Below the pieces are notes generated by a model, which was given only the letters and a program-made list of their open reading frames with translations, did not search any database and had not been told where the DNA came from. A stretch of DNA of 64,000 nt from an uncultured Lachnospiraceae bacterium (GTDB taxonomy: Bacteria > Bacillota > Clostridia > Lachnospirales > Lachnospiraceae): positions 100,985-164,984 of the forward strand of contig CADACD010000003.1 of assembly GCA_902786365.1 (NCBI GenBank), read 5' to 3'. Shown here piece after piece: positions 3,947-63,841 of this stretch (position 1 is its first letter; each line of letters opens with the position of its first letter). Made by a program: the position numbers and the translations under genes.

Positions 3947-4504
3947 ATGGAAATGAAAAAACTTGTTAGTAATTTGAAAGGTCATTTACAGACTGTGTTG
4001 AAACATAAAAAAGAAGTAATGTTTAACTGTTTTAAATGTGGATTGATTATTCAGGGAATGATACATGATTTGTCTAAGTTTTCTCCGTCAGAACTTGTGC
4101 CAAGTGTCATAAACTTTCAAGGCGATAGAAGTCCTAATGAAGGAGAAAGAGAAAAATATGGATATTCAAAGGCATGGATGCATCACAAGGGGAGAAATAA
4201 GCATCATTTTGAATATTGGACAGATTACAGTACACAGACAAGAGAACTTGAGCCGGTGGAGATTCCTAAAAGATATGTCGTAGAAATGTTTTGTGACAGA
4301 GTTGCCGCAAGCAAAATTTATCTAGGTGAAAATTATGATGATTCTGCACCTCTTAATTATTTCTTGAAGGGAAAGAAAAAAAGAAAAATTCACCAGAAGT
4401 CAGGAGAACAGCTTGAAAGACTTCTAAGAATGTTAGAGGAAAAAGGAGAGGAGGAAACTTTCAAATATATACGCAGAGCTTTATTTTTACATAAGGAGTT
4501 GTAA
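3947..4504 (+). CDS. DUF5662 family protein (putative metal-dependent, HD-like)
   Basis: The function is unknown. The start is placed at the ATG seven bases after GGAGG (a GTG 24 bases earlier also opens the frame). The 185-residue protein is soluble and mostly helical. It contains histidine/aspartate clusters typical of DUF5662 proteins: MIHDLSKFSPSE (about residues 42-53) and HHKGRNKHHFEYW (about 82-94), which could bind metal like an HD-domain hydrolase, though I see no full canonical HD signature. Lys/Glu-rich helices occupy the C-terminus. It is 29 bases upstream of the glycerophosphodiesterase gene and probably cotranscribed with it. Family membership is fairly sure; catalysis is only inferred. 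Confidence 0.7.
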   Translation: MEMKKLVSNLKGHLQTVLKHKKEVMFNCFKCGLIIQGMIHDLSKFSPSELVPSVINFQGDRSPNEGEREKYGYSKAWMHHKGRNKHHFEYWTDYSTQTRELEPVEIPKRYVVEMFCDRVAASKIYLGENYDDSAPLNYFLKGKKKRKIHQKSGEQLERLLRMLEEKGEEETFKYIRRALFLHKEL

Positions 4505-44002: not shown

Positions 44003-44036
44003 TAGAAAAAATATAGTATGTAAGGAGGTTATTTTG

Positions 44037-45839
44037 ATGTCAGCAAAAAGAACATTTGGATGGATACAGAATCCGGGCGATTTAAAAAAGTTAAAAAAAG
44101 TTGTTGGAATCTTTCAACCGGAATCTGTAGAAAACAGTTGGATGATAAAAGAAAGATTACCATTATTACTTCAATATTCTTTGATTAGTGATGATGATTA
44201 TATGAGATTTATCCATGAATTAAGTAAACCAGCGATTGAAATTGATTATAGTATTTTGAAAGGAAAAGGTTCTGGTAACGGAAGCAGAAAAGATGCTATT
44301 TGCACAGGTATTATTCAAGCTGTTATTAATGCTCAGCAAAAAAAGACATATTTAGATAAAAATGGAAGGGCCATAACTATAAAAAAGCCATACACAGATG
44401 ATTGGTCTGCTGAGGGCTATATAAGATGGGCTATATCATGTGGACTTATTGAATATATAAAAGACAGTGATAAGTGCAAAATTACTTCTTTGGGAGAAGA
44501 ATTGACAAAAACAATAGAAGGTTCACAGGAAGAAAAAGAAGCATTTTCTAAGGCACTTTTATTATATCCACCAGTTAATAGAGTGCTTTCTTTATTGAAA
44601 GAAAAAGATTATCAGACTAAATTTGATTTAGGAAATAAATTAGGATTTAAAGGGGAAATGGGCTTTACTTCAATACCACAAGAAATATATTTGTGTGATT
44701 ATTGTGAAGCTAATACTAATAAAGAAAAGTCAGCGATTAGAAGTAATGAAGAAGGAGATTCTGACAAATATGCAAGAGGAATTGCAAGCTGGTGTACACA
44801 AATGGGATGGGTGGAGTCATCTGTTATGGAGGTCACAGGAATATACAGAAGTCATACATATACAGCACCATTGCAACATTATTCTCTGACAAGAACAGGA
44901 GAAAAGGCACTTATTAAAGCAAAAGGAAATTCAAGTAATTCTAGAATTCCTCGAATATTGATGTTTGAGATGCTTGCTTCTAATAAAGCACATGGAGCAG
45001 ATTATTTGCGATATCAAAGGGCTTGTATTATAAAAGTTTTGTCTAATACAGAAAAGACATTAGAGCAACTGCAAAAAGGACTTAAAAACTATGGACTTGA
45101 ATTAGATATTGCATCAATTAAAGACCATATAGAGGGACTTATATCGATAGGTATTGATATTTCTGTTGATGGAAATAAGTATAGATTGCTTGATAAGATA
45201 AAATGTCTTGAAATTCCGGAGCAATCACTGTGCGTTAAAGATGAAGTAAATGATATTATTGATAGAGTACGAAGTAAATTGAAACATCTTGATCATAAAT
45301 ATCTCGCACTTATTGACCTAGCGTATAGTGATGCATCTTCTAGAGCGAAGAAAAATGCGGATGCACGTGAGTTTGAAATACAAACTGCAGATTTACTCAT
45401 TAATGAATTATCATTTAATGGAATGCGTTTAGGAGATTCGCGAAAACCTGATATTATTGTGTCATATGATACAAATGGAACGATTATCGATAATAAATCA
45501 TATAAAGATGGATTTAATATAAGTCGATCCAGTGCAGATGAAATGAGCAGATATATTAATGAAAACAGGATGCGTTTATCAATATTAAATTCTAATCAAT
45601 GGTGGAATAATTTTGATTCAAGAATAAAAACGTATACATTTTTATTTATTACATCATATCTGAAAGGGGAATTTGAAAAGCAGCTAGAATATATATCTAA
45701 TGCAAATTCAGGAATCAGAGGTGCTGCAATAGGGGTAGAAAACTTGCTATATCTTTCAGAAGGAATCAAAAGTGGTCAATTAAGTTATATGGATTTTTAT
45801 AATAGTTTTAACAATAAAGAGATGATTTTTAATATATAG
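44037..45839 (+). CDS. FokI-type type IIS restriction endonuclease
   Basis: Homologue of R.FokI (about 580 residues; 600 here). The DNA-recognition part has the FokI landmarks RTFGWIQNPGDLKKLKKVV at the N-terminus, YPPVNRVLSLL, TKFDLGNKLGFKGEMGFTS and SDKYARGIASW. The C-terminal cleavage domain (about 410-600) has the catalytic PD-(D/E)XK residues: Asp in DSRKPDIIV (equivalent to D450), Asp and Lys in IIDNKSYKDGFN (D467, K469), then SADEMSRYINENRMR and NSNQWWNNF. All catalytic residues are kept, so it should cut, by homology near GGATG (9/13). AAGGAGG ribosome site. Confidence 0.93.
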   Translation: MSAKRTFGWIQNPGDLKKLKKVVGIFQPESVENSWMIKERLPLLLQYSLISDDDYMRFIHELSKPAIEIDYSILKGKGSGNGSRKDAICTGIIQAVINAQQKKTYLDKNGRAITIKKPYTDDWSAEGYIRWAISCGLIEYIKDSDKCKITSLGEELTKTIEGSQEEKEAFSKALLLYPPVNRVLSLLKEKDYQTKFDLGNKLGFKGEMGFTSIPQEIYLCDYCEANTNKEKSAIRSNEEGDSDKYARGIASWCTQMGWVESSVMEVTGIYRSHTYTAPLQHYSLTRTGEKALIKAKGNSSNSRIPRILMFEMLASNKAHGADYLRYQRACIIKVLSNTEKTLEQLQKGLKNYGLELDIASIKDHIEGLISIGIDISVDGNKYRLLDKIKCLEIPEQSLCVKDEVNDIIDRVRSKLKHLDHKYLALIDLAYSDASSRAKKNADAREFEIQTADLLINELSFNGMRLGDSRKPDIIVSYDTNGTIIDNKSYKDGFNISRSSADEMSRYINENRMRLSILNSNQWWNNFDSRIKTYTFLFITSYLKGEFEKQLEYISNANSGIRGAAIGVENLLYLSEGIKSGQLSYMDFYNSFNNKEMIFNI

Positions 45840-49679: not shown

Positions 49680-51467
49680 ATGAAAGAAGAAAAAAAGCTG
49701 TCAGCATTTTCGGTGCTGATGGGTTATGCAGGAAATTACAAGGGACTCACCTATTTATCACTTGTATTGTCTGCTGTGACAGGATTACTGGCACTTATGC
49801 CATTTGTCTATCTTTGGCGGATTATTAAGGAAGTCATTGAGGTCAGGCCAAATTTTTCGGAGGCAGTCAACATCACACATAATGGCTGGATGGCAGTCAT
49901 ATTTGCATTAATTTCAATGCTATTGTATTTTGCGGCACTGATGTGTTCGCATGTTTCTGCATTTCGTGTGGCGGGCAATATGAAAAAAGATTTGTTGCGT
50001 CATATTGCGAACCTTCCTATCGGATTTGCGGATGAGATGGGTTCCGGTAAAGTACGAAGAACTGTTACCGAGGCAACTTCATCAACGGAAACACTTCTGG
50101 CACATAACTTGCCGGACATGGTGCAGGCGATAGTGACACCACTCGCAATGGTGGTAATGCTTTTTGTCTATGACTGGCGTTTCGGGCTTGCCTGCCTGGC
50201 ATCCATTATTGTTGCGTTCGTCATGATGTTTCGGATGGCAGGACCGGCGATGGCAGAGGATATGAAAAATTATCAGAATGCATTGGAAAAAATGAGCAAT
50301 GAGGCAGTGGAATATATTCGAGGAGTGCCGGTTGTCAAAACGTTTGGGCAGACAGTCTTTTCATTCCACCGCTTTAAGGAGTCGATTGATGACTATGGGA
50401 AATTCTGTCTGGAATATACATACAGATGTAGAAGTGCTATGATTCTGTTTACTATGTTTATCAACTCTGCATTTGCATTTCTGATTGGACTTATGCTGTT
50501 TTTGACAAGAGGAGGCGGAGAAGTGTCACAGGACATTCTTGTTAATTTCCTGTTTTATGTCATTTTTACACCAGTGATTGTCACAACTATGAACCGTGTG
50601 ATGTTTATGTCAGAAAACAGTATGAAGATTAATGATGCAATTACAAGAATCAATTCTATTCTTGATATCAAACCACTTTTGGAACCGGAAGATAAAAAGC
50701 AGCCAAAAGGGGAGACTGTAGAAATCAGTAATGTTACTTTCCGATATTCAGATGATGCAAAGCCGGCAGTAAAAAATCTGACATTGTCAGCAGACAAGGA
50801 TGAGATTGTTGCACTCGTTGGAGCATCAGGAAGTGGAAAAACTACTGTGGCAGGTCTGGTATCACGTTTTTATGATGCACAGGAGGGAAGTGTGAAGATT
50901 GGCGGAGTGGATGTGAAGGACATCGGAAAAGATGAACTGATGAATACAGTTTCTTATGTATTTCAGGACAGTAAACTCTTGAAACGTTCTATTGCAGATA
51001 ATTTAAAAATTGCAAAACCGGATGCCACAGAAGACGAATTAAAAGCTGCATTAAAGGCTGCACAGTGTGATGATATTATAGAGAGACTTCCGAAGGGAAT
51101 GGATACTGTTCTTGGCAGTGAAGGAACCTATCTGTCAGGAGGCGAGAAACAGCGTATCGCCATTGCAAGGGCAATACTGAAGAAAGCACCTGTTGTCATT
51201 TTAGATGAGGCGACGGCATTTGCAGATCCGGAAAATGAAGTGCTTGTTCAGAAAGCGTTTATGGAACTGACAAAGAGCAGTACGGTTATCATGATTGCAC
51301 ATAGACTGTCAACTGTCAGAAATGCAGATAAGATATACGTTTTAGACCATGGTGAAGTGGCAGAAGAAGGAAAACATGAGGAATTAATTGCAAAGGGCGG
51401 ATTGTACAGTTTGATGTGGAAAGAATATCAGAGTGCGATTAGCTGGAAGGTAGGTGAAGCAGTATGA
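49680..51467 (+). CDS. ABC exporter-type permease/ATPase, first subunit
   Basis: Half-transporter with six membrane spans (about 1-310) and an ATPase domain. The 595-residue protein has Walker A VGASGSGKTTVAG near residue 383, signature YLSGGEKQRIAIAR and Walker B VVILDEATAFADPENE. The phrases RGVPVVKTFGQTVFSFHRF and DEATAFADPENE are typical of the IrtAB/YbtPQ-like branch, whose members can import siderophores despite the exporter fold, so import is possible. Its stop overlaps the next start (ATGA), so the products are a heterodimer. AAGGAGA ribosome site. Presumed TetR-regulated. Confidence 0.88.
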   Translation: MKEEKKLSAFSVLMGYAGNYKGLTYLSLVLSAVTGLLALMPFVYLWRIIKEVIEVRPNFSEAVNITHNGWMAVIFALISMLLYFAALMCSHVSAFRVAGNMKKDLLRHIANLPIGFADEMGSGKVRRTVTEATSSTETLLAHNLPDMVQAIVTPLAMVVMLFVYDWRFGLACLASIIVAFVMMFRMAGPAMAEDMKNYQNALEKMSNEAVEYIRGVPVVKTFGQTVFSFHRFKESIDDYGKFCLEYTYRCRSAMILFTMFINSAFAFLIGLMLFLTRGGGEVSQDILVNFLFYVIFTPVIVTTMNRVMFMSENSMKINDAITRINSILDIKPLLEPEDKKQPKGETVEISNVTFRYSDDAKPAVKNLTLSADKDEIVALVGASGSGKTTVAGLVSRFYDAQEGSVKIGGVDVKDIGKDELMNTVSYVFQDSKLLKRSIADNLKIAKPDATEDELKAALKAAQCDDIIERLPKGMDTVLGSEGTYLSGGEKQRIAIARAILKKAPVVILDEATAFADPENEVLVQKAFMELTKSSTVIMIAHRLSTVRNADKIYVLDHGEVAEEGKHEELIAKGGLYSLMWKEYQSAISWKVGEAV

Positions 51468-53413: not shown

Positions 53414-55432
53414 ATGGCTAAAAACAAAGAATTAAAGTATAAGATTAAAGCAGGTAATCCGATGCAGCTTGGAGCAGTAAAGACAAATGATGGAATCAAC
53501 TTTGCTCTGATGTTAAATGGAAGGGAACAAAAGGCGTGCTCACTGATTCTATACGAGAAGGGTACGCTTAAAGTGGCTGCAGAGATTGCATTTACGCAAG
53601 ATATGTGGTATGGCAATATTTGCACCATGTGTCTGCAGGGAATCAGTCTTAATAATTTTGATTATAATTATCGTGTTGGAAATAAAGTAATCACTGATCC
53701 ATATGCAGCAATTATCAATGGAGCAGGAGTATTTGGAGAAAACGATGTCAAAAAGAAGACATCCGCAGGATATGTGGACAAGTTTAATTGGGAAGATGAT
53801 ATAAAACCTATGATAAACTTTTCGGATAGTATTATCTATCGTCTCCATGTCCGCGGATTTACAATGAACAGGTTTTCAAAAGTCAGAAAAAAGGGAACAT
53901 TTGCGGGAATTACTGAAAAGATTGAATATTTCAAAGAGCTTGGGATAACAATGGTAGAACTTATGCCGGCATATGAGTTCAATGAAAATGAGGGAGTCAA
54001 AGATGGAAAGGTCAATTATTGGGGATACACAAGTGCAGACTACCTTATGCCGAAGGTTGCCTATTCTTATAAAAAAGAGGCAAAGAGTGCAATAAATGAA
54101 TTTAAGACAATGGTTAAAGAGCTTCATAAAAATAAGATAGAAGTATGCATGGAATTCTATTTTAGTAAGGACATTTCACCGGCATATATGATAGACTGTT
54201 TCAGATACTGGGTTATTCATTACCATATCGATGGAATTCACTGTAACATGAGCGATGATATCAGGGGTGCAGTCAGTTCAGATCCATATCTTGCAAACAC
54301 AAAGATTATCAGCTATGGTTTTGAAAGTGATGAGTATTCATTTAACAGACATCTTGGAGAGTCAAATGATGTGTTTATGAATATTGCAAGAAAGTTTTTA
54401 AAAGGTGATGAGGGTACTGTTAATGATATGGCTTTCAGAGTCAGATATAATAAAGATTTTGCAACACCTGTCAATTACATTGCCAATAATAATGCTTTTA
54501 CCATGATGGATATGGTATCATTCTCAACGAAGCATAATGAGGATAACAAAGACAGCAATAAAGACGGCCGGGATGATAATTACAGCTGGAACTGTGGCTT
54601 TGAAGGAATTACAAACAGAAAGAATATCAAAAAGTTCAGATTAAAGCAGCTTAAGAATGCATGGTGCCTTTTAATGCTGTGTCAGGGAGCACCTATGATA
54701 TATGCGGGAGATGAGTTTGGAAATTCATGCGATGGAAATAATAACCCATACTGTCAGGATAATGATATCTCTTATCTTGACTGGAGACTTATCAAAAAGA
54801 ATAATGAATTATTTGAATTTGTAAAATACATTATCAAGTTTAGAAAAGAGCATAATATCTTACATCTTGACAAACCATTCAGGCTGAATGATTATAGGTC
54901 ACTTGGAATGCCTGATATGTCATATCATTCTGAGAGAACATGGGCATTAAATACAGATGTGTTTGCCAGACATTTTGCAGTGATGTTGTATGGAAAATAT
55001 TGTAAAGTATTTAAAAAGCCGGAAGAAGAAAATCTGTATATTGCATTCAATATGTACTGGGAGAGTAAAAAATTCGGACTTCCTACAGCCGGTAAGGGCA
55101 AAGAATGGAAAATTGCATTTACTACAGATGAAGAAGGTAAAGTTGAGATAGATGACAGAAATGTAAAATTTTCAAGAAGTATTAAACTCCCGCCAAGAAG
55201 TGTTGCAGTGCTTATCAGCGAGGAAAACGAAGAAGTGATTGCAGAAGAAAATGCAAAAGAGGAAGAGAACAAAAGAATTGCAATTGAAATAAGCAAAAGA
55301 CAGAAAACTCTAAAACAAAGCAATTTGAAGCAGGATTGTATCAATGAAGAGAGCACAATAGAAGAAAGTGCAAATACAAAGATAGAAAGTGTGAATATAC
55401 AAGGTGTGAATATAGGACATACAAATATTTAA
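53414..55432 (+). CDS. Catalytically inactive GH13 isoamylase/debranching-enzyme homologue
   Basis: Homologue of glycogen-debranching GH13 enzymes (isoamylase/GlgX type), 672 residues. Structure is preserved: an N-terminal beta domain, the barrel entry IYRLHVRGFT (about 141-150), GTFAGITEKIEYFKELGIT, and YAGDEFGNSCDGNNNPYCQD. The active site is not. Region I DVVxNH reads MEFYFSK (about 246-252); region II DGFRFD reads DGIHCN (Asp nucleophile to Asn278, Arg to His); region III Glu is Tyr301; region IV HDG reads NNA (Asn359-Asn360). All three catalytic acids are gone. It probably binds glucan or acts as a scaffold/regulator. The C-terminal ~60 residues are charged and low-complexity. Frame and ribosome site are intact, so it is not a simple pseudogene. 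Confidence 0.85.
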   Translation: MAKNKELKYKIKAGNPMQLGAVKTNDGINFALMLNGREQKACSLILYEKGTLKVAAEIAFTQDMWYGNICTMCLQGISLNNFDYNYRVGNKVITDPYAAIINGAGVFGENDVKKKTSAGYVDKFNWEDDIKPMINFSDSIIYRLHVRGFTMNRFSKVRKKGTFAGITEKIEYFKELGITMVELMPAYEFNENEGVKDGKVNYWGYTSADYLMPKVAYSYKKEAKSAINEFKTMVKELHKNKIEVCMEFYFSKDISPAYMIDCFRYWVIHYHIDGIHCNMSDDIRGAVSSDPYLANTKIISYGFESDEYSFNRHLGESNDVFMNIARKFLKGDEGTVNDMAFRVRYNKDFATPVNYIANNNAFTMMDMVSFSTKHNEDNKDSNKDGRDDNYSWNCGFEGITNRKNIKKFRLKQLKNAWCLLMLCQGAPMIYAGDEFGNSCDGNNNPYCQDNDISYLDWRLIKKNNELFEFVKYIIKFRKEHNILHLDKPFRLNDYRSLGMPDMSYHSERTWALNTDVFARHFAVMLYGKYCKVFKKPEEENLYIAFNMYWESKKFGLPTAGKGKEWKIAFTTDEEGKVEIDDRNVKFSRSIKLPPRSVAVLISEENEEVIAEENAKEEENKRIAIEISKRQKTLKQSNLKQDCINEESTIEESANTKIESVNIQGVNIGHTNI

Positions 55433-55457: not shown

Positions 55458-56183
55458 ATGATGAAAGGTAACTGCATAAGCATGGAAAAAAGAATGGATT
55501 TTAAATGTCTCTCAGCATCAGGTCTTAAGCTGATAGCAGTTATAACAATGACCATTGATCATATTGGGGCGGCATTGCTGCCTCAGTATTTATTTTTGCG
55601 TATGATAGGAAGACTTGCATTTCCGATATATTGTTATATGATAGTCAATGGATTGTTTCACACAAAAAATTGTGGTAAATATATTTTGAGATTATTTACG
55701 TTTGCGTTAATATCAGAGGTGTTTTTTGATCTGGCATTTTATGGTGAGGTAATTAATAAGGAACATCAGAATGTATTTTTTACATTAGGAATTGGACTCA
55801 CAGTCATAGCGGTCATAGAAAAATTGAGGATAAAGTATGGGATATATTCGATATTTGTATCGACAGCAGATATTATTATATTGGCAGCAGGTTGTGCCAC
55901 TGCATATTTTTTGAGAACAGATTATTCGTTTTATGGTGTGCTGATGATATATGGATTTTATTCTTTTAGATTTAATGCTGTTGTATCGAGTGTATTTCAG
56001 ATATTTATTAACTGTATTATACTTAGGGGAGTGCAGGGATTCGCAGTATTTTCACTTATACCAATATGGTTGTACAATGGTGAGAAAGGGAGGAATGCAG
56101 GTTGGGTAAAATGGCTGTTTTATGTCTATTATCCGATACACTTGTTGGTAATTTTTGTATTAAAAAAAATACTATTTTACTAA
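55458..56183 (+). CDS. TraX family membrane protein
   Basis: Integral membrane protein of the TraX family; the founding member acetylates F-pilin, but chromosomal Firmicute members have unknown, probably acyltransferase, roles. The 241-residue protein has about seven to eight membrane spans and the family start LKLIAVITMTIDHIGAALLP and LRMIGRLAFPIYCYMIVNG. Start candidates are ATG 55458 and ATG 55482; ribosome sites are weak for both. It follows the GH13-like gene by 25 bases and is probably cotranscribed with it. Confidence 0.85.
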   Translation: MMKGNCISMEKRMDFKCLSASGLKLIAVITMTIDHIGAALLPQYLFLRMIGRLAFPIYCYMIVNGLFHTKNCGKYILRLFTFALISEVFFDLAFYGEVINKEHQNVFFTLGIGLTVIAVIEKLRIKYGIYSIFVSTADIIILAAGCATAYFLRTDYSFYGVLMIYGFYSFRFNAVVSSVFQIFINCIILRGVQGFAVFSLIPIWLYNGEKGRNAGWVKWLFYVYYPIHLLVIFVLKKILFY

Positions 56184-57300: not shown

Positions 57301-58608
57301 ATGTTAGTAAAGAAAAACATAGATATTATTTTGGCGTCAAAGTCTCCAAGGAGACAGGAGCTGCTCCACCAGATAGATATAAGTTACAGATGTATGCCAA
57401 GCAGTAAGGAAGAAGTGATTACGACAAATTGCCCGGCAGAGGCAGTAAAAGAGCTGTCAGCACAAAAGGCACGTGATATTGAAGAACAGATAAAAAGTGC
57501 ACAGCAGGTAAGTAATAAAGGTTCAAAGATAATCATAGGTGCAGATACTGTCGTGGCTTTTGAAGGGAAAATACTTGGAAAGCCAAAAGATGAGAAAGAT
57601 GCATTTTCAATGTTATCAATGTTAAGTGGCAAATCTCATGAAGTATATACAGGTGTGACAGTGATTTATCTGTCAGGGTATGAAAATTATCCGAGAAAAG
57701 AAATTGTATTCAGCGAATGTACAAAAGTGAAAGTGGCACAGTTGTCAGAAGACGATATCAAAAACTATATAGCAACAAAAGAGCCGATGGATAAGGCAGG
57801 TGCCTATGGAATACAGGGAAAATTTGGAAAGTATATCAACGGCATAGAAGGTGACTACAATAATGTGGTAGGACTTCCAATTGCCAGGCTGTTTCAGGAA
57901 GTGAGGGATAAACTTGGAATTAACCTGACAGATGTTGTAATTGAAAAAAGAGATAAAGTAAAGGCATGTATCTTTGATTTGGATGGAACAACACTTGATA
58001 CATTGGAATCTATCGGTTCTACAGTCAACCTTGTGCTTGATGAACTTGGACTTAAAACACATGAAATAGAAGAATATAAGCACTTTGCAGGTGATGGACA
58101 GTATGAACTTGTTAGGAGGTCATTGATTGCGGCTGGCGATGAAAAACTTCAAAATTATGATGTTGCAATGAACAGATATATTGAACTTTTCAAAGACAGA
58201 TGTACATATCATGTCAGGTTGTATGATGGTATAAGAGAGTTGATGGAGGCTTTAAAAGCAAAAGGAATAAAGGTAAGTATACTATCTAATAAACACCATG
58301 ACAATGTTGTGAGTATTCTTAATGAATTATTCGGAGAGAATTATTTTGATTGTGTGCTGGGGCAGAGAGATGACCATAAAAAGAAGCCGAGTGGTGAGGG
58401 AATCAATATCATTTTGAATGAAATTGGGGAAAATCCCGAACATTGCATTTATATTGGTGATACAGACACAGACATGTTGACAGGAAAGAATTATGGATTG
58501 TATACTGTAGGTGTTGGCTGGGGATTCAGAACAAAAGAAGAACTTGTCAGTGCTGATGCAGATTATATAGTGGATAAACCGGAAGAAATTTTGAAGATAT
58601 GTGAATGA
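57301..58608 (+). CDS. Fusion of Maf nucleotide pyrophosphatase and HAD phosphatase
   Basis: Two-domain house-cleaning enzyme of 435 residues. The N-terminal Maf domain (about 1-205) has LASKSPRRQELL, GADTVVAFEGKILGKP, HEVYTGVTV and DKAGAYGIQGKF, the motifs of the dTTP/UTP pyrophosphatase YhdE class. The C-terminal HAD domain (about 218-435) has motif I FDLDGTTLDTLESI, motif II ILSNKHHD, motif III lysine in KKKPSGEG and motif IV YIGDTDTDMLTGKNYG, as in phosphoglycolate phosphatases. The linker is short and in frame, so this is a genuine fusion. It could hydrolyse a noncanonical NTP to NMP and then dephosphorylate it. Strong ribosome site (AAAGGG). Confidence 0.9.
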   Translation: MLVKKNIDIILASKSPRRQELLHQIDISYRCMPSSKEEVITTNCPAEAVKELSAQKARDIEEQIKSAQQVSNKGSKIIIGADTVVAFEGKILGKPKDEKDAFSMLSMLSGKSHEVYTGVTVIYLSGYENYPRKEIVFSECTKVKVAQLSEDDIKNYIATKEPMDKAGAYGIQGKFGKYINGIEGDYNNVVGLPIARLFQEVRDKLGINLTDVVIEKRDKVKACIFDLDGTTLDTLESIGSTVNLVLDELGLKTHEIEEYKHFAGDGQYELVRRSLIAAGDEKLQNYDVAMNRYIELFKDRCTYHVRLYDGIRELMEALKAKGIKVSILSNKHHDNVVSILNELFGENYFDCVLGQRDDHKKKPSGEGINIILNEIGENPEHCIYIGDTDTDMLTGKNYGLYTVGVGWGFRTKEELVSADADYIVDKPEEILKICE

Positions 58609-59807: not shown

Positions 59808-62786
59808 TTATTCTTCTGCCTTCTTAGTTTTTCTGTTCTTTTTCATTATATCAGCAATCAATATGGCGATAAATACTAAAACACTTAAGATGGATAGAGA
59901 AATACCGGCTTTTAATCCTCTTGGCGAATAATCAAACGATATCGTATGTTCGCCCTTATCCAAATAGAAGGAAAGCAGTGCATCTTTAAAAGCATGTGTG
60001 GATGTCTTTTTGCCATCTACATAAACAGTCCATCCTTCATCGTAAGGAATTGATGTATAGAGAAGACCACTATTTTTAACATCAATTTTTGCCTCCACAT
60101 GAGTATCATCAAATTTTGTAATATCAAGAGTACTTTCACTTAATTTATCAAAAGTATCAAGGAAGATATTTTTATCAAAGCTGTAAGCATACAGCTGAAT
60201 GGAAGATACATCTGGGTCAGAAGAATATACAACAACTTTAGTGCCGGTTTCTAATTCTCCGAGATCAAGCATGTGACTGTGTGTCATGGAATAATAGTTC
60301 TTTGTGGCTGTACTTCCGTCAGAAAAAGTTTTATCAACTGTTATTCTGTCAAGAGAAGTGGTAACATAGATAAACAGGTGAGTATCATTTTCAAGATAAA
60401 TTTCATTATCATCACCGATTGTGTTGACCATCAGTCTTGTATACATGGGATGTTCTTCGCTGTCAAGCCCAAGTATACTGCTCACCATTTCATTTTGCAC
60501 TGCAAATGGATTAGGATTTGTGATCTCCCATTTCTCTTCCATATCAGCAGGAACCATGAATCCGAGCGGGAGCCAGTATTTGTTTTCATACATATAATAA
60601 TCTGCTTCGATTCCGGAAGTTTTTGTGTAGGTTTCTTTCTCAAACAGGCTGATATAATCTGTTTCCGGTAACGTATTTGAACTTAATACATATTTTATGG
60701 AAAACATGGCTGCTGTAAGTGGCGTATGTCCATAATAAGCATAGGCGTTTGTCGATTCTTCGAAACCAAGTGCACCATAATATTCACTGAGTCCTGAATT
60801 GGTGGTTGATGAGAAAATCGATGCACCGTGATAATTGCTCCATGCAGCATCATTTTTTGAACGTCTGTCTTCTTTTTCGATTCTAAAGAAACTGGTATTT
60901 GATTCGGCATTTTCATTGATATTTGCCTTATCGACTAAGGTAGTAATTGTCTTGTTATCATCAAGATAGGCAGAACGTGTACATGTGCTTAAAGCTGTCT
61001 CGTCTGTATTGATATAGCATTCGGCAGTAATCATGATGATAAGCAGATAAGCGACAAATCCTTGCTTATAATTGTTGTTTCTGAATAATGAAAATACTAT
61101 CATATAAAAAATCAAAAATGTAATACTGATATAAATTGTGGATGCAGAGTACGTATCAGAAACAAATAACTGTTCAATTAAAAGAATCAGTGCAATGGCA
61201 CCGGCAAAGCAGGAATACAATTGTTTTCTCGTTACTTCCCTCAAATAAATCAGAGCCTCATATCCCATAGACAGAACCATGAAAATATATAAGAACGATT
61301 CACGGCATGGAAGGCTGTTAGGATAATGGAATCCATGCCAGATATAATTAGGGATATTTGTATTAAAACTATATAATAAAAAGCAGACAATTGATATTTT
61401 TGCTATCTTTTCTTTTGTATTAATCTTAGGATTGATGACATAAAGAGGAAGCAGAAGAAATACAATTACACCACAGTAAATATTAGGATCATGTGCTGAA
61501 AAAACAGCAGGTTCTACATTGATTAAAGCTCTCGATAACATGAATAATGCTGAGAAATAAGTAATCACTGTTTTTGGAAATTCAAATTCTCCTGATGCTG
61601 TTGATGATAATGCAAAGTAAGCTGGAAGAAATGTCACAGCAGCAAAACCACCGGCAAGAAGAGAATAGAGTACAAAATTTTTAAAACGTACTGAATAGTA
61701 AGACAATGTTTTTGTGCTGTCATCTGCATAAATAAGTCCGATATAGTAAATTGCGCAGAAGATACAGATCATAATTGCAATATAGTAATTAGATAGAATT
61801 GCAATTCCAAGTGATATACAGTAAAGATAGCATTTGTTTTCTTTGACAAGTCTTTCAAGTCCGAGAATGATAAGTGGAAGCAGTACAAGACAGTCAATCC
61901 ACATAAGATTCCAGCTGTATGCACAGAAGTACGAAGAAAGTGCATAAAAGACAGAAAGAGATGCAATGGTAGCTTTTTTTGTATCAAAATGTTTGCTCAG
62001 ATAATAGGCAAACGTAGAGCTTGACAGTGCTGTTTTGACAATGATGAAAACACTCATAATTTCAGGAATGTGGGAAGGTTTCACAAGACCGATAAACCAG
62101 TTGATCGGGCTTGCAAGATAATAGGCGTATAATGCACTGAAATTGACACCCATTCCGATATTCCATGAATAAGTAAAGTTGCCACCGGATTTTATTTTGT
62201 TGTAAAATTCCATCATAAATGGAGCGTATTGATGGTAACAGTCACTTCTCAAGTACATATTGTCGCCGAATGGATAGATTTTTCTTATGTGGTATATAAT
62301 AACAAGTATGATAAGTGGAATAATAAATGCCACAAAATAAGAAAAATTCTCTGCGATAAAAGAAACTGTTGTATTCTTATTTTCCTTTTTGTTAAAGATA
62401 AATAATTTGCTAAAGATGTAGTTGAGTATCACAACGAAAATGCTTGAAATGACTTTTGCAATAAAGTCATTCATTCCAAACAAAGTAACAGTCAGATACA
62501 TAAATACAAGACTGAATACAAGTGAAAATAGTCTTGCTCCGAGAAATCCGGCAAATTCATTGAAGAGTGTCGAAAAATCGGTTTTCTTACTTCGAAATAC
62601 AATCAGTTTGTTAGTGACAAATGCAAACAAAAATGCAATGCACCAAGATAATGTATTAGCTATCAGGTAGTTTACCGAAATACGTGTGAGGATAAAATAC
62701 ACTGAAAAATCTATGATTGTTGTTAGAACACCAAATATGAGATAATAAATTGTTTCCTTATTAATAAATTTTTTAAGTCTGTTCAT
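59808..62786 (-). CDS. GtrA flippase-YfhO glycosyltransferase fusion
   Basis: Large membrane protein for glycosylating a cell-surface polymer. The start is set at the ATG giving MNRLKKFINKETIYYL, the usual GtrA opening; the frame stays open to 62873, overlapping the GT2 stop. About 992 residues. Residues 1-130 are a four-span GtrA/GtcA domain (YYLIFGVLTTIIDF ... FVVILNYIFSKLFIF), which flips undecaprenyl-phosphate sugars. Residues about 145-990 are YfhO: 10-12 spans with LRSDCYHQYAPF and WNIGMGVNFSALYAYYLASP, a large external loop domain, DEGWTVYVDGKK and a final span. GtcA and YfhO are separate proteins in Bacillus. It is directly downstream of the partner GT2. Confidence 0.88.
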   Translation of the reverse strand: MNRLKKFINKETIYYLIFGVLTTIIDFSVYFILTRISVNYLIANTLSWCIAFLFAFVTNKLIVFRSKKTDFSTLFNEFAGFLGARLFSLVFSLVFMYLTVTLFGMNDFIAKVISSIFVVILNYIFSKLFIFNKKENKNTTVSFIAENFSYFVAFIIPLIILVIIYHIRKIYPFGDNMYLRSDCYHQYAPFMMEFYNKIKSGGNFTYSWNIGMGVNFSALYAYYLASPINWFIGLVKPSHIPEIMSVFIIVKTALSSSTFAYYLSKHFDTKKATIASLSVFYALSSYFCAYSWNLMWIDCLVLLPLIILGLERLVKENKCYLYCISLGIAILSNYYIAIMICIFCAIYYIGLIYADDSTKTLSYYSVRFKNFVLYSLLAGGFAAVTFLPAYFALSSTASGEFEFPKTVITYFSALFMLSRALINVEPAVFSAHDPNIYCGVIVFLLLPLYVINPKINTKEKIAKISIVCFLLYSFNTNIPNYIWHGFHYPNSLPCRESFLYIFMVLSMGYEALIYLREVTRKQLYSCFAGAIALILLIEQLFVSDTYSASTIYISITFLIFYMIVFSLFRNNNYKQGFVAYLLIIMITAECYINTDETALSTCTRSAYLDDNKTITTLVDKANINENAESNTSFFRIEKEDRRSKNDAAWSNYHGASIFSSTTNSGLSEYYGALGFEESTNAYAYYGHTPLTAAMFSIKYVLSSNTLPETDYISLFEKETYTKTSGIEADYYMYENKYWLPLGFMVPADMEEKWEITNPNPFAVQNEMVSSILGLDSEEHPMYTRLMVNTIGDDNEIYLENDTHLFIYVTTSLDRITVDKTFSDGSTATKNYYSMTHSHMLDLGELETGTKVVVYSSDPDVSSIQLYAYSFDKNIFLDTFDKLSESTLDITKFDDTHVEAKIDVKNSGLLYTSIPYDEGWTVYVDGKKTSTHAFKDALLSFYLDKGEHTISFDYSPRGLKAGISLSILSVLVFIAILIADIMKKNRKTKKAEE

Positions 62787-62869
62787 TTTATGAAAAATTC
62801 CTTTCGAAAAATTGATTGCTGCATTTTTTAACAAAAGCGGCAAAAATGATAATAATGCCAAAGATACTA

Positions 62870-63841
62870 TCAATGGCCGGCAGGATAATTTTTGTGATTC
62901 TGCTCATTATCAACTGTAATATTAGTATGGTGTATAATAAAAAGCGGCCTTGCTTTTGTTTCAATATAAATATGACCAATATACTCACCTAATACACCGA
63001 TGGAAAATTCGGTAATCCCACCTAAAAACAATACTGCCGATAACGTGGTCACATACCCCGGTACGGAAATTCCAAAAATAAGTGTTTGTATAAGGGTAAT
63101 GATGATATAAGTAAATGCGGCAACGGAAATGAAAAATCCGAAGCCTGTAACCATTCTCAGTGGTGCAACCGAAAATGCTGTAATTCCATCGATAGCGTAT
63201 TTAAATAATCCCCAGAAACTCCATTTGGTTTTACCGACAGTTCTCTGTACATTTTCATATGGTATCCATTTTTTCTTAAAACCTACCCATTCAAAAATTC
63301 CCTTTGAAAATCGTTGGGATTCGCAGAGAGATAAAACAGCAAGAACCATCTGTCTTGACATAATCCTGTAGTCAACAGCACCGGATACAAGGTTGATGTT
63401 TGTGAGCTTATTAGTGATGTGATAAAAACTTCTTGAAAACATACTTCGAATCCTTGCTTCGCCTTTTCTGTTGGTACGCTGTGCGGCAACACAATCATAA
63501 CCTTCCTCAATGCCCTCAATCATATGTGGTATTAAAGAAGGAGGATGTTGCAGGTCAGCATCCATAATGATTACATAATCTCCTGTAGAATGCAAAAGTC
63601 CGGCATACATACCGGCTTCTTTGCCAAAATTTCTTGAAAAAGAAATATATTTTACATTATCATATTTATTAGAAAGCTCTAATATAATATCAAAAGTATT
63701 ATCACGACTTCCGTCATCAATAAAAATATAATTAAATAAATAGCCGTCAATGCTGTCAGTCACTTTTGAAGTTTCATCATAGAAAAGATGAAGAACCTCC
63801 GATTCGTTGTAGCACGGCACGACTATATCAACTGTATTCAT
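62870..63841 (-). CDS. GT2 polyprenyl-phosphate sugar transferase (CsbB/GtrB-like)
   Basis: Transfers a nucleotide-sugar residue to undecaprenyl phosphate on the inner membrane face. The 323-residue protein has the GT-A motifs VVPCYNESEVLHLFY, YIFIDDGSRDNT, FSRNFGKEAGMYAGL, DADLQHPP, the QRTNRKGEARIRS loop, and two C-terminal membrane spans with GVLGEYIGHIYIETKARP. This is the CsbB/GtrB/DPM1-like layout. It forms an operon with the GtrA-YfhO fusion, supplying its lipid-linked sugar. GGAGATG ribosome site; promoter at 63892-63920. Confidence 0.92.
   Translation of the reverse strand: MNTVDIVVPCYNESEVLHLFYDETSKVTDSIDGYLFNYIFIDDGSRDNTFDIILELSNKYDNVKYISFSRNFGKEAGMYAGLLHSTGDYVIIMDADLQHPPSLIPHMIEGIEEGYDCVAAQRTNRKGEARIRSMFSRSFYHITNKLTNINLVSGAVDYRIMSRQMVLAVLSLCESQRFSKGIFEWVGFKKKWIPYENVQRTVGKTKWSFWGLFKYAIDGITAFSVAPLRMVTGFGFFISVAAFTYIIITLIQTLIFGISVPGYVTTLSAVLFLGGITEFSIGVLGEYIGHIYIETKARPLFIIHHTNITVDNEQNHKNYPAGH

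What the first reader, a model, noticed from the sequence alone, without database searches (positions are those of the whole stretch)
53414..55432. A full-length GH13 debranching-enzyme homologue that has lost every catalytic residue
The barrel framework and the GDEFGNS motif are preserved, but region I (MEFYFSK), region II (DGIHCN: nucleophile Asp to Asn, Arg to His), region III (Tyr301 at the acid/base Glu) and region IV (NNA for HDG) are all changed. The frame is open over 672 codons and has its own promoter, so selection seems to keep a non-enzymatic protein. A glucan-binding regulator or scaffold for glycogen metabolism is a plausible new role.
Basis: partly seen in the sequence, partly recalled or inferred. 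Interest (0 to 1): 0.72.

Follow-up and report, generated by a model that had tools for sequence, protein, structure and literature searches.

The report
Conserved inactive relative of debranching enzyme
A protein built like the enzyme that trims branches off glycogen has lost its cutting apparatus, yet most sampled genera of one large family of gut bacteria keep it with half of its sugar groove intact, which suggests that it senses or holds glycogen instead of cutting it.

Summary
The ORF at 53414-55432 is a GlgX/isoamylase homologue (TIGR02100 312 bits, cut-off 641; best fold matches ISA1 and GlgX) in which nucleophile, acid/base, transition-state Asp and the region I Asn and His are replaced, and about 44 residues after strand 3 are deleted. 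It is not a decaying copy. The same genome has an intact GlgX. A relative occurs in 123 of 150 sampled genera of the bacterial family (Lachnospiraceae by record titles) and in none of 233 sampled genomes of the class outside it. I aligned 136 distinct members: none keeps the triad, one keeps the nucleophile Asp. 45 of them, tested, form one clade inside GlgX; dN/dS is 0.06. The loss is lopsided: GlgX-conserved columns around strands 3-5 are nearly all gone, those around strands 1, 2, 7 and 8 mostly kept, including residues that touch sugars in a solved GlgX. Best reading: a non-catalytic glucan-binding protein, a bacterial counterpart of plant ISA2. Glucan binding is inferred, not shown. It is unlikely to be an obligate GlgX subunit: GlgX was not detected in 82 of the 123 genera. 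Weak points: no biochemistry, middling fold model, no glycogen genes next door, partners unknown.

The parts
53414..55432 (+). pseudo-GlgX gene, 672 codons plus stop
   Evidence: open frame; TIGR02100 312.5 bits, below cut-off 640.9; PF00128
53441..53812 (+). N-terminal beta domain (residues 10-133), CBM48-like by position
   Evidence: aligns with the GlgX/ISA1 N-domain; PF02922 itself was found only in the intact GlgX, not in this protein
53828..54883 (+). (beta/alpha)8 barrel, residues about 139-490, eight strands predicted
54020..54028 (+). W203-G204-Y205, kept sugar-contact motif after strand 2
   Evidence: W 136 of 136, Y 122 of 136 with 14 F; equals W222/Y224 of S. venezuelae GlgX by motif
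54152..54169 (+). region I, E247-K252 in place of DVVFNH
   Evidence: alignment
54173..54181 (+). approximate junction of the deleted loop after strand 3 (own-GlgX residues 293-336 missing)
54230..54247 (+). region II, D273-N278; nucleophile Asp is Asn278, Arg is His276
54308..54325 (+). region III, Tyr301 at the acid/base Glu
54488..54496 (+). region IV, N359-N360-A361 in place of HDG
54509..54607 (+). loop 7, D366-G398, strongly conserved in the family and in GlgX; D380 here is Glu in 132 of the 135 rows with a residue
54707..54763 (+). GDEFGNSCDGNNNPYCQDN (432-450), loop 8; N444 and Y446 correspond to sugar contacts N534 and Y536
54911..55228 (+). C-terminal beta domain, residues about 500-605
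55229..55429 (+). helical tail (606-672), variable in length and sequence within the genus
   Evidence: alignment and model
55458..56183 (+). TraX-family membrane protein gene, 25 nt downstream, probable operon partner
   Evidence: PF05857 E 6e-44; its cluster is the first downstream gene in 24 of 84 loci

Best explanation
A GlgX (glycogen debranching enzyme, GH13_11) gene was duplicated or acquired before the Lachnospiraceae diversified. One lineage lost the catalytic half of its barrel and was then kept as a non-catalytic protein. SHOWN by sequence: loss of catalytic residues in all 136 members aligned, a single clade for the 45 put in a tree, purifying selection within the window's genus, retained residues around strands 1, 2, 7 and 8; the fold is predicted. 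INFERRED: the retained half-cleft binds alpha-1,4-glucan chains (maltooligosaccharide or glycogen ends) without cutting them, and the bound or free state of the protein regulates or positions glycogen metabolism in the cytoplasm. The partner that reads this state is unknown; in most genera it is probably not GlgX.
For: No triad in 136 of 136 distinct members: 88 keep none of the three acids, 46 one, 2 two, both without the nucleophile; 23 of 23 GlgX rows keep all. Sugar contacts of S. venezuelae GlgX mapped on the family: kept W222 136/136, Y224 122/136 (14 F), E470 132/135, N534 134/134, Y536 125/134; lost nucleophile D342 1/136, H271 2/136, E378 16/136, D450 33/136. Glu at the E470 position is 108 of 111 here but 8 of 23 in GlgX rows (15 Trp), so it is not merely a GlgX constant. 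Of columns at least 95% conserved in GlgX, strands/loops 3-5 keep 1 of 58 and 1, 2, 7, 8 keep 45 of 68. dN/dS window against L007 0.061 (core 0.046); intact GlgX of the same two genomes 0.022. One clade, SH-aLRT 100, inside GlgX. 123 of 150 genera.
Against: No binding or activity data. Loops 7 and 8 may be kept for folding or for a protein interface. The window protein itself has Asp, not Glu, at 380. Other sugar contacts are not kept (W380 40/136, H449 51/136) and R212 could not be mapped. The mapping is by sequence, not on a structure of this protein; the model has mean pLDDT 68.5 and is poor exactly in loops 7 and 8. No glg gene was recognised among recurrent neighbours. glgC is in 147 of 150 genomes, so co-occurrence with glycogen synthesis says nothing. 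Pfam's CBM48 model does not find the N-domain.
Confidence: 0.5

Rival explanations
1. Scaffold or allosteric subunit whose kept face is a protein-protein interface, with no use of the sugar cleft; partner another glucan enzyme (GlgP, GlgB, a pullulanase or a maltodextrin glucosidase).
For: Plant ISA2, a non-catalytic GH13_11 paralogue, is found in heteromers with ISA1 (passages). Intact GlgX is somewhat commoner where the pseudo gene is present: 41 of 123 against 3 of 27, Fisher p 0.021.
Against: GlgX was not detected in 82 of 123 genera with the gene, and in 60 of those no type I pullulanase either. The p value takes genera as independent. Several sugar-contact residues are kept at near invariance.
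Confidence: 0.22
2. A new enzyme: the old catalytic half is gone, but residues such as K214, H238, E380, D433, E434, D493, S503, H505 or W510 form a new active site.
For: Some residues are far more conserved here than in GlgX rows: K214 98%, H238 100% (61% in GlgX), E380 97%, D493 96%, W510 100%. GH13 proteins with odd triads can be active (BmaN1, passages). In 60 genera neither GlgX nor type I pullulanase was detected, 58 of them with glgC.
Against: No shifted triad: only 4 of 111 rows have an acid within two residues of all three catalytic positions. D433 and E434 are shared with ordinary GlgX. A roughly 690-aa GH13 protein, maltodextrin-glucosidase-like in the one case tested, was in 12 of 12 such genomes looked at and may do the work.
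Confidence: 0.15
3. A decaying GlgX copy on its way out.
For: Catalytic positions carry many different residues, as expected after loss of constraint at those sites.
Against: dN/dS 0.05-0.23 within the genus (dS saturated beyond the nearest pair); 131 of 136 rows lie in a frame closed by its own stop and 5 run to a contig end; the rows are stop-to-stop stretches of 372-813 aa, 133 of them at least 568 aa; one deep clade.
Confidence: 0.02

Closest known systems
GlgX / isoamylase-type glycogen debranching enzyme (TIGR02100, GH13_11)
   Same: Predicted fold, N-domain, barrel, C-domain, loops 7 and 8, GNNNxYCQDN signature; the clade is nested in GlgX.
   Different: No catalytic triad, loop after strand 3 deleted, half the curated score.
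Plant ISA2 (non-catalytic isoamylase)
   Same: GH13_11 paralogue kept over a whole lineage with catalytic residues changed; the paper reports at least 4 of 5 conserved residues varied in every ISA2 examined (section read).
   Different: Plant ISA2 has an extra N-terminal beta-sandwich and is seen in complexes with ISA1 (passages); here no extra domain, and GlgX was not detected in most genera. Independent origin is likely from the lineage restriction but ISA2 was not put in the tree.
BmaN1-type alpha-amylases with aberrant triad
   Same: GH13 barrel with changed catalytic residues, Glu at the start of region I (passages).
   Different: BmaN1 keeps Glu231 and a neighbouring Asp203 and is active; here no regular substitute exists.
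GlgD, regulatory partner of GlgC
   Same: Precedent for a regulatory non-catalytic subunit in the same pathway (passage).
   Different: Unrelated fold (recalled); acts on a synthesis step.

Membership tests
GlgX (TIGR02100) | score above curated cut-off 640.9 bits | tested here: not met
   312.5 bits for the window protein; 331.5 and 316.7 for two relatives; 658.3 for the intact GlgX of the same genome. Note that 17 of 42 genomes with a strong GlgX match also fall short of this cut-off, at 610-636 bits
GlgX (TIGR02100) | Asp-Glu-Asp triad | tested here: not met
   Asn278, Tyr301, Asn360; 0 of 136 members have the triad
GlgX (TIGR02100) | GlgX fold and descent | tested here: met
GlgX (TIGR02100) | alpha-1,6 debranching activity | not testable with these tools
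   needs an assay
Plant ISA2 | catalytic residues changed in a conserved GH13_11 paralogue | tested here: met
   all eight catalytic-region positions checked are changed in the window protein; conserved over 123 of 150 genera
Plant ISA2 | extra N-terminal beta-sandwich before CBM48 | tested here: not met
   alignment to GlgX and ISA1 begins at residues 4-10, leaving no room for a further domain
Plant ISA2 | heteromer with a catalytic isoamylase | not testable with these tools
   GlgX not detected in 82 of 123 genera, which argues against an obligate one
BmaN1-type GH13 | Lys followed by Asp at the nucleophile and His at the stabiliser | tested here: not met
   acid at +1 of the nucleophile position in 3 of 111; stabiliser position is mostly N, D or T
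c-di-GMP-responsive GlgX of Streptomyces | ExR(X)6R motif and Arg438/Arg579 equivalents | not tested
   only read about

The most novel reading that the evidence does not exclude
Lachnospiraceae own an ancient glycogen chain-end reader: a dead debranching enzyme that keeps one wall of the substrate groove, lives on without a detectable active GlgX in two thirds of the genera that carry it, and controls carbon storage, perhaps with a TraX-like membrane protein and DUF5662 encoded in the same operon.
Probability: 0.3. Interest if true: 0.8.

Novelty: new variant of a known kind. Interest (0 to 1): 0.64.

Why it matters
Of 150 sampled genomes of this gut bacterial family 147 have glgC, so glycogen storage is probably near universal there. 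A conserved non-catalytic GlgX would be a bacterial parallel to plant ISA2, whose role a 2025 paper calls unclear (passage), and would make it testable in simpler organisms. In practice, genomes with only this gene can be misread as having a glycogen debranching enzyme; a published survey counts two glgX homologues in Blautia obeum (passage), one of which may be this protein (not checked).

Tried and rejected
Decaying enzyme: rejected on dN/dS, open frames and clade depth. Shifted catalytic acids as in BmaN1: rejected. Obligate GlgX subunit: made unlikely by distribution. Link to glycogen by glgC co-occurrence: uninformative, 147 of 150. DUF5662 as a specific partner: it is the first downstream gene in 33 of 84 loci, but is present in 130 of 150 genomes, 108 of 123 with the pseudo gene, and in the window genome lies elsewhere. 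Frames that run on into other genes (L012 into Maf, L021 into a methylguanine methyltransferase) involve different partners and gave no lead. Plasmid collection: 515 records with a match, all under 60% identity; the 15 rows shown are annotated GlgX at 30-35% (their residues were not checked).

G149 gave a weak split hit with the pseudo profile but no GlgX in two searches; it is left unexplained and counted as lacking both. Only the best 7 candidates per genome were scored and the best 8 (up to 46 candidates in the first look), so absence means 'not detected'. Of the five non-family genomes with a split hit, four loci were looked at: three show all four GlgX catalytic motifs by simple pattern, the fourth (L154) three of four.

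Papers: ten searches gave no title or listed abstract on a non-catalytic GlgX in bacteria. I saw listings only, apart from passages of PMC12892837, PMC12510319, PMC10395257, PMC4236520, PMC9530166, PMC5347038 and PMC11046441 and one section of PMC12510319. The library holds open-licence papers only.

Full report
What is there. The frame at 53414-55432 (+) encodes 672 aa. Family models place it near GlgX but far under the cut-off: TIGR02100 312.5 bits against 640.9; Pfam sees the alpha-amylase domain. By sequence the best solved relatives are plant ISA1 and GlgX/TreX, with ISA2 further down the list. The window belongs to a 3.1-Mb genome in 126 contigs that also carries an intact GlgX (G000:C1:110345-112378; 658 bits) and two type I pullulanases. 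Record titles of the close relatives read Lachnospiraceae or Clostridiales; that some come from rumen samples is my reading of their RUG isolate names, recalled.

The loss. Aligned with the intact GlgX, the window protein has Glu247/Ser251/Lys252 in region I, His276 and Asn278 in region II, Tyr301 at the acid/base and Asn359-Asn360 in region IV. In addition GlgX residues 293-336 after strand 3 and 364-377 in loop 4, and the shorter stretches 107-119 and 449-456, are missing in more than 80% of 111 family rows.

The family. A search of 60 genomes (own included) with the protein gave any match in 38; the 29 other loci taken from it, L007-L035, are of the window type. A profile of the window and 30 relatives (A1) was run on 150 genomes, one per genus, at least 90% complete: 127 hits at E 1e-60 or better, of which 4 (G012, G077, G081, G149) are split or unclear, leaving 123. 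All 123 were fetched or already held and aligned. With eight more genomes of the window's genus and five that were only this makes 136 distinct proteins, window included, from 128 genera. None has the triad; 88 have none of the three acids, 46 one, 2 two (L034 and L130, both without the nucleophile); one row (L028) has the nucleophile Asp alone. All 23 GlgX rows keep all eight catalytic-region residues. Five rows run to a contig end; three of these are short, 372-467 aa. In a sample of 243 genomes of the class (Clostridia by inference), 8 of 10 from the same bacterial family (own genome included) have it and none of 233 others at E 1e-60; five of those others gave split, GlgX-like hits.

Descent and selection. 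In a tree of 45 family members, 23 GlgX and 2 pullulanases as outgroup the family is one side of a branch with SH-aLRT 100 and lies inside GlgX (quick search, no bootstrap; 45 of the 111 rows then held were used). Nei-Gojobori dN/dS, window against L007, is 0.061 (0.046 for residues 1-608) at dS 1.0; the intact GlgX of the same two genomes gives 0.022. Other pairs of the genus give 0.05-0.23 with saturated dS; for one, the core ratio could not be computed. So constraint is strong, somewhat weaker than on GlgX.

A half-kept cleft. I compared 151 columns that are at least 95% conserved in the 23 GlgX rows. In strands and loops 3, 4 and 5, 1 of 58 is kept in at least 90% of 111 family rows and 47 are lost (under 50%); in strands and loops 1, 2, 7 and 8, 45 of 68 are kept and 9 lost; the N-terminal part keeps 3 of 16 (segment borders set by me by hand). 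A paper on S. venezuelae GlgX with acarbose lists sugar contacts (passages). I mapped them on the own GlgX by motif and spacing, without that sequence in the alignment: W222, Y224, E470, N534 and Y536 are kept in 136/136, 122/136 (14 F), 132/135, 134/134 and 125/134 rows; D342 remains in 1/136, H271 in 2/136, E378 in 16/136, D450 in 33/136, W380 in 40/136 and H449 in 51/136; R212 could not be mapped. The window protein has Asp at the E470 position. K214, H238, E380, D493 and W510 are far more conserved here than in GlgX, so something of its own is selected. This pattern is why I favour glucan binding without cleavage; it is an inference.

Distribution against active enzymes. GlgX: 44 of 150 genera with profile A2 (two as pieces at contig ends or in short frames), 42 with TIGR02100 at E 1e-150. 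Both genes 41, pseudo gene only 82, GlgX only 3, neither 24; Fisher p 0.021, odds ratio 4. Type I pullulanase: 38 of 150; 60 of the 82 pseudo-only genera have neither, 58 of these 60 with glgC. In 12 genomes of that kind a roughly 690-aa GH13 protein is present in each by frame length and match pattern; the one scored (L155) is maltodextrin glucosidase/cyclomaltodextrinase-like, below the cut-offs.

Neighbourhood. In 85 loci (one of 86, L124, was not recovered by the ORF filter; six are from the window's genus), the first downstream gene on the same strand is DUF5662 in 33 of 84 and TraX in 24 of 84, 55 of these 57 within 67 nt or overlapping; upstream genes vary. DUF5662 was named by Pfam on one example and TraX on the window's gene; a sugar-binding lipoprotein upstream in 12 loci was named by Pfam, while ABC-F ATPase and exonuclease III upstream are my reading of the sequences. 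In the window TraX follows by 25 nt. DUF5662 occurs in no held paper and is common in the family regardless. No glg gene was recognised among the recurrent neighbours, though in two genera the intact GlgX gene lies within a few kb (L069, L104).

Relation to known things. It works most like plant ISA2 (non-catalytic GH13_11 paralogue under selection) but lacks ISA2's extra domain and, in most genera, an active GlgX. It should not be filed as GlgX: the triad and the curated score fail. Ten searches of an open-licence library showed no report of such a bacterial family.

Noticed in passing
window 44034-45839 (+): FokI-like type IIS restriction enzyme: all three recognition subdomains and the FokI cleavage domain match.
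   Followed up: partly
window 59808-62873 (-): GtrA domain fused to the membrane protein YfhO in one 1021-aa frame.
   Followed up: partly
window 57301-58608 (+): Maf domain fused to a HAD phosphatase.
   Followed up: partly
L012 901-3333 (-); L021 1399-3798 (+): The pseudo-GlgX frame runs on without a stop into Maf (L012) or a methylguanine methyltransferase (L021): possible fusions with different partners.
   Followed up: partly
150-genus sample: In 60 genera with the pseudo gene, 58 of them with glgC, neither GlgX nor type I pullulanase was detected: how they debranch glycogen is open.
   Followed up: partly
window 50111-50201 (+): ARAGORN tRNA-Ala prediction lies inside an ABC transporter frame and is probably false.
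   Followed up: no
window about 3977-4429 (+): The DUF5662 gene of this genome lies here, about 49 kb from the pseudo-GlgX gene that it follows in many other genera.
   Followed up: partly
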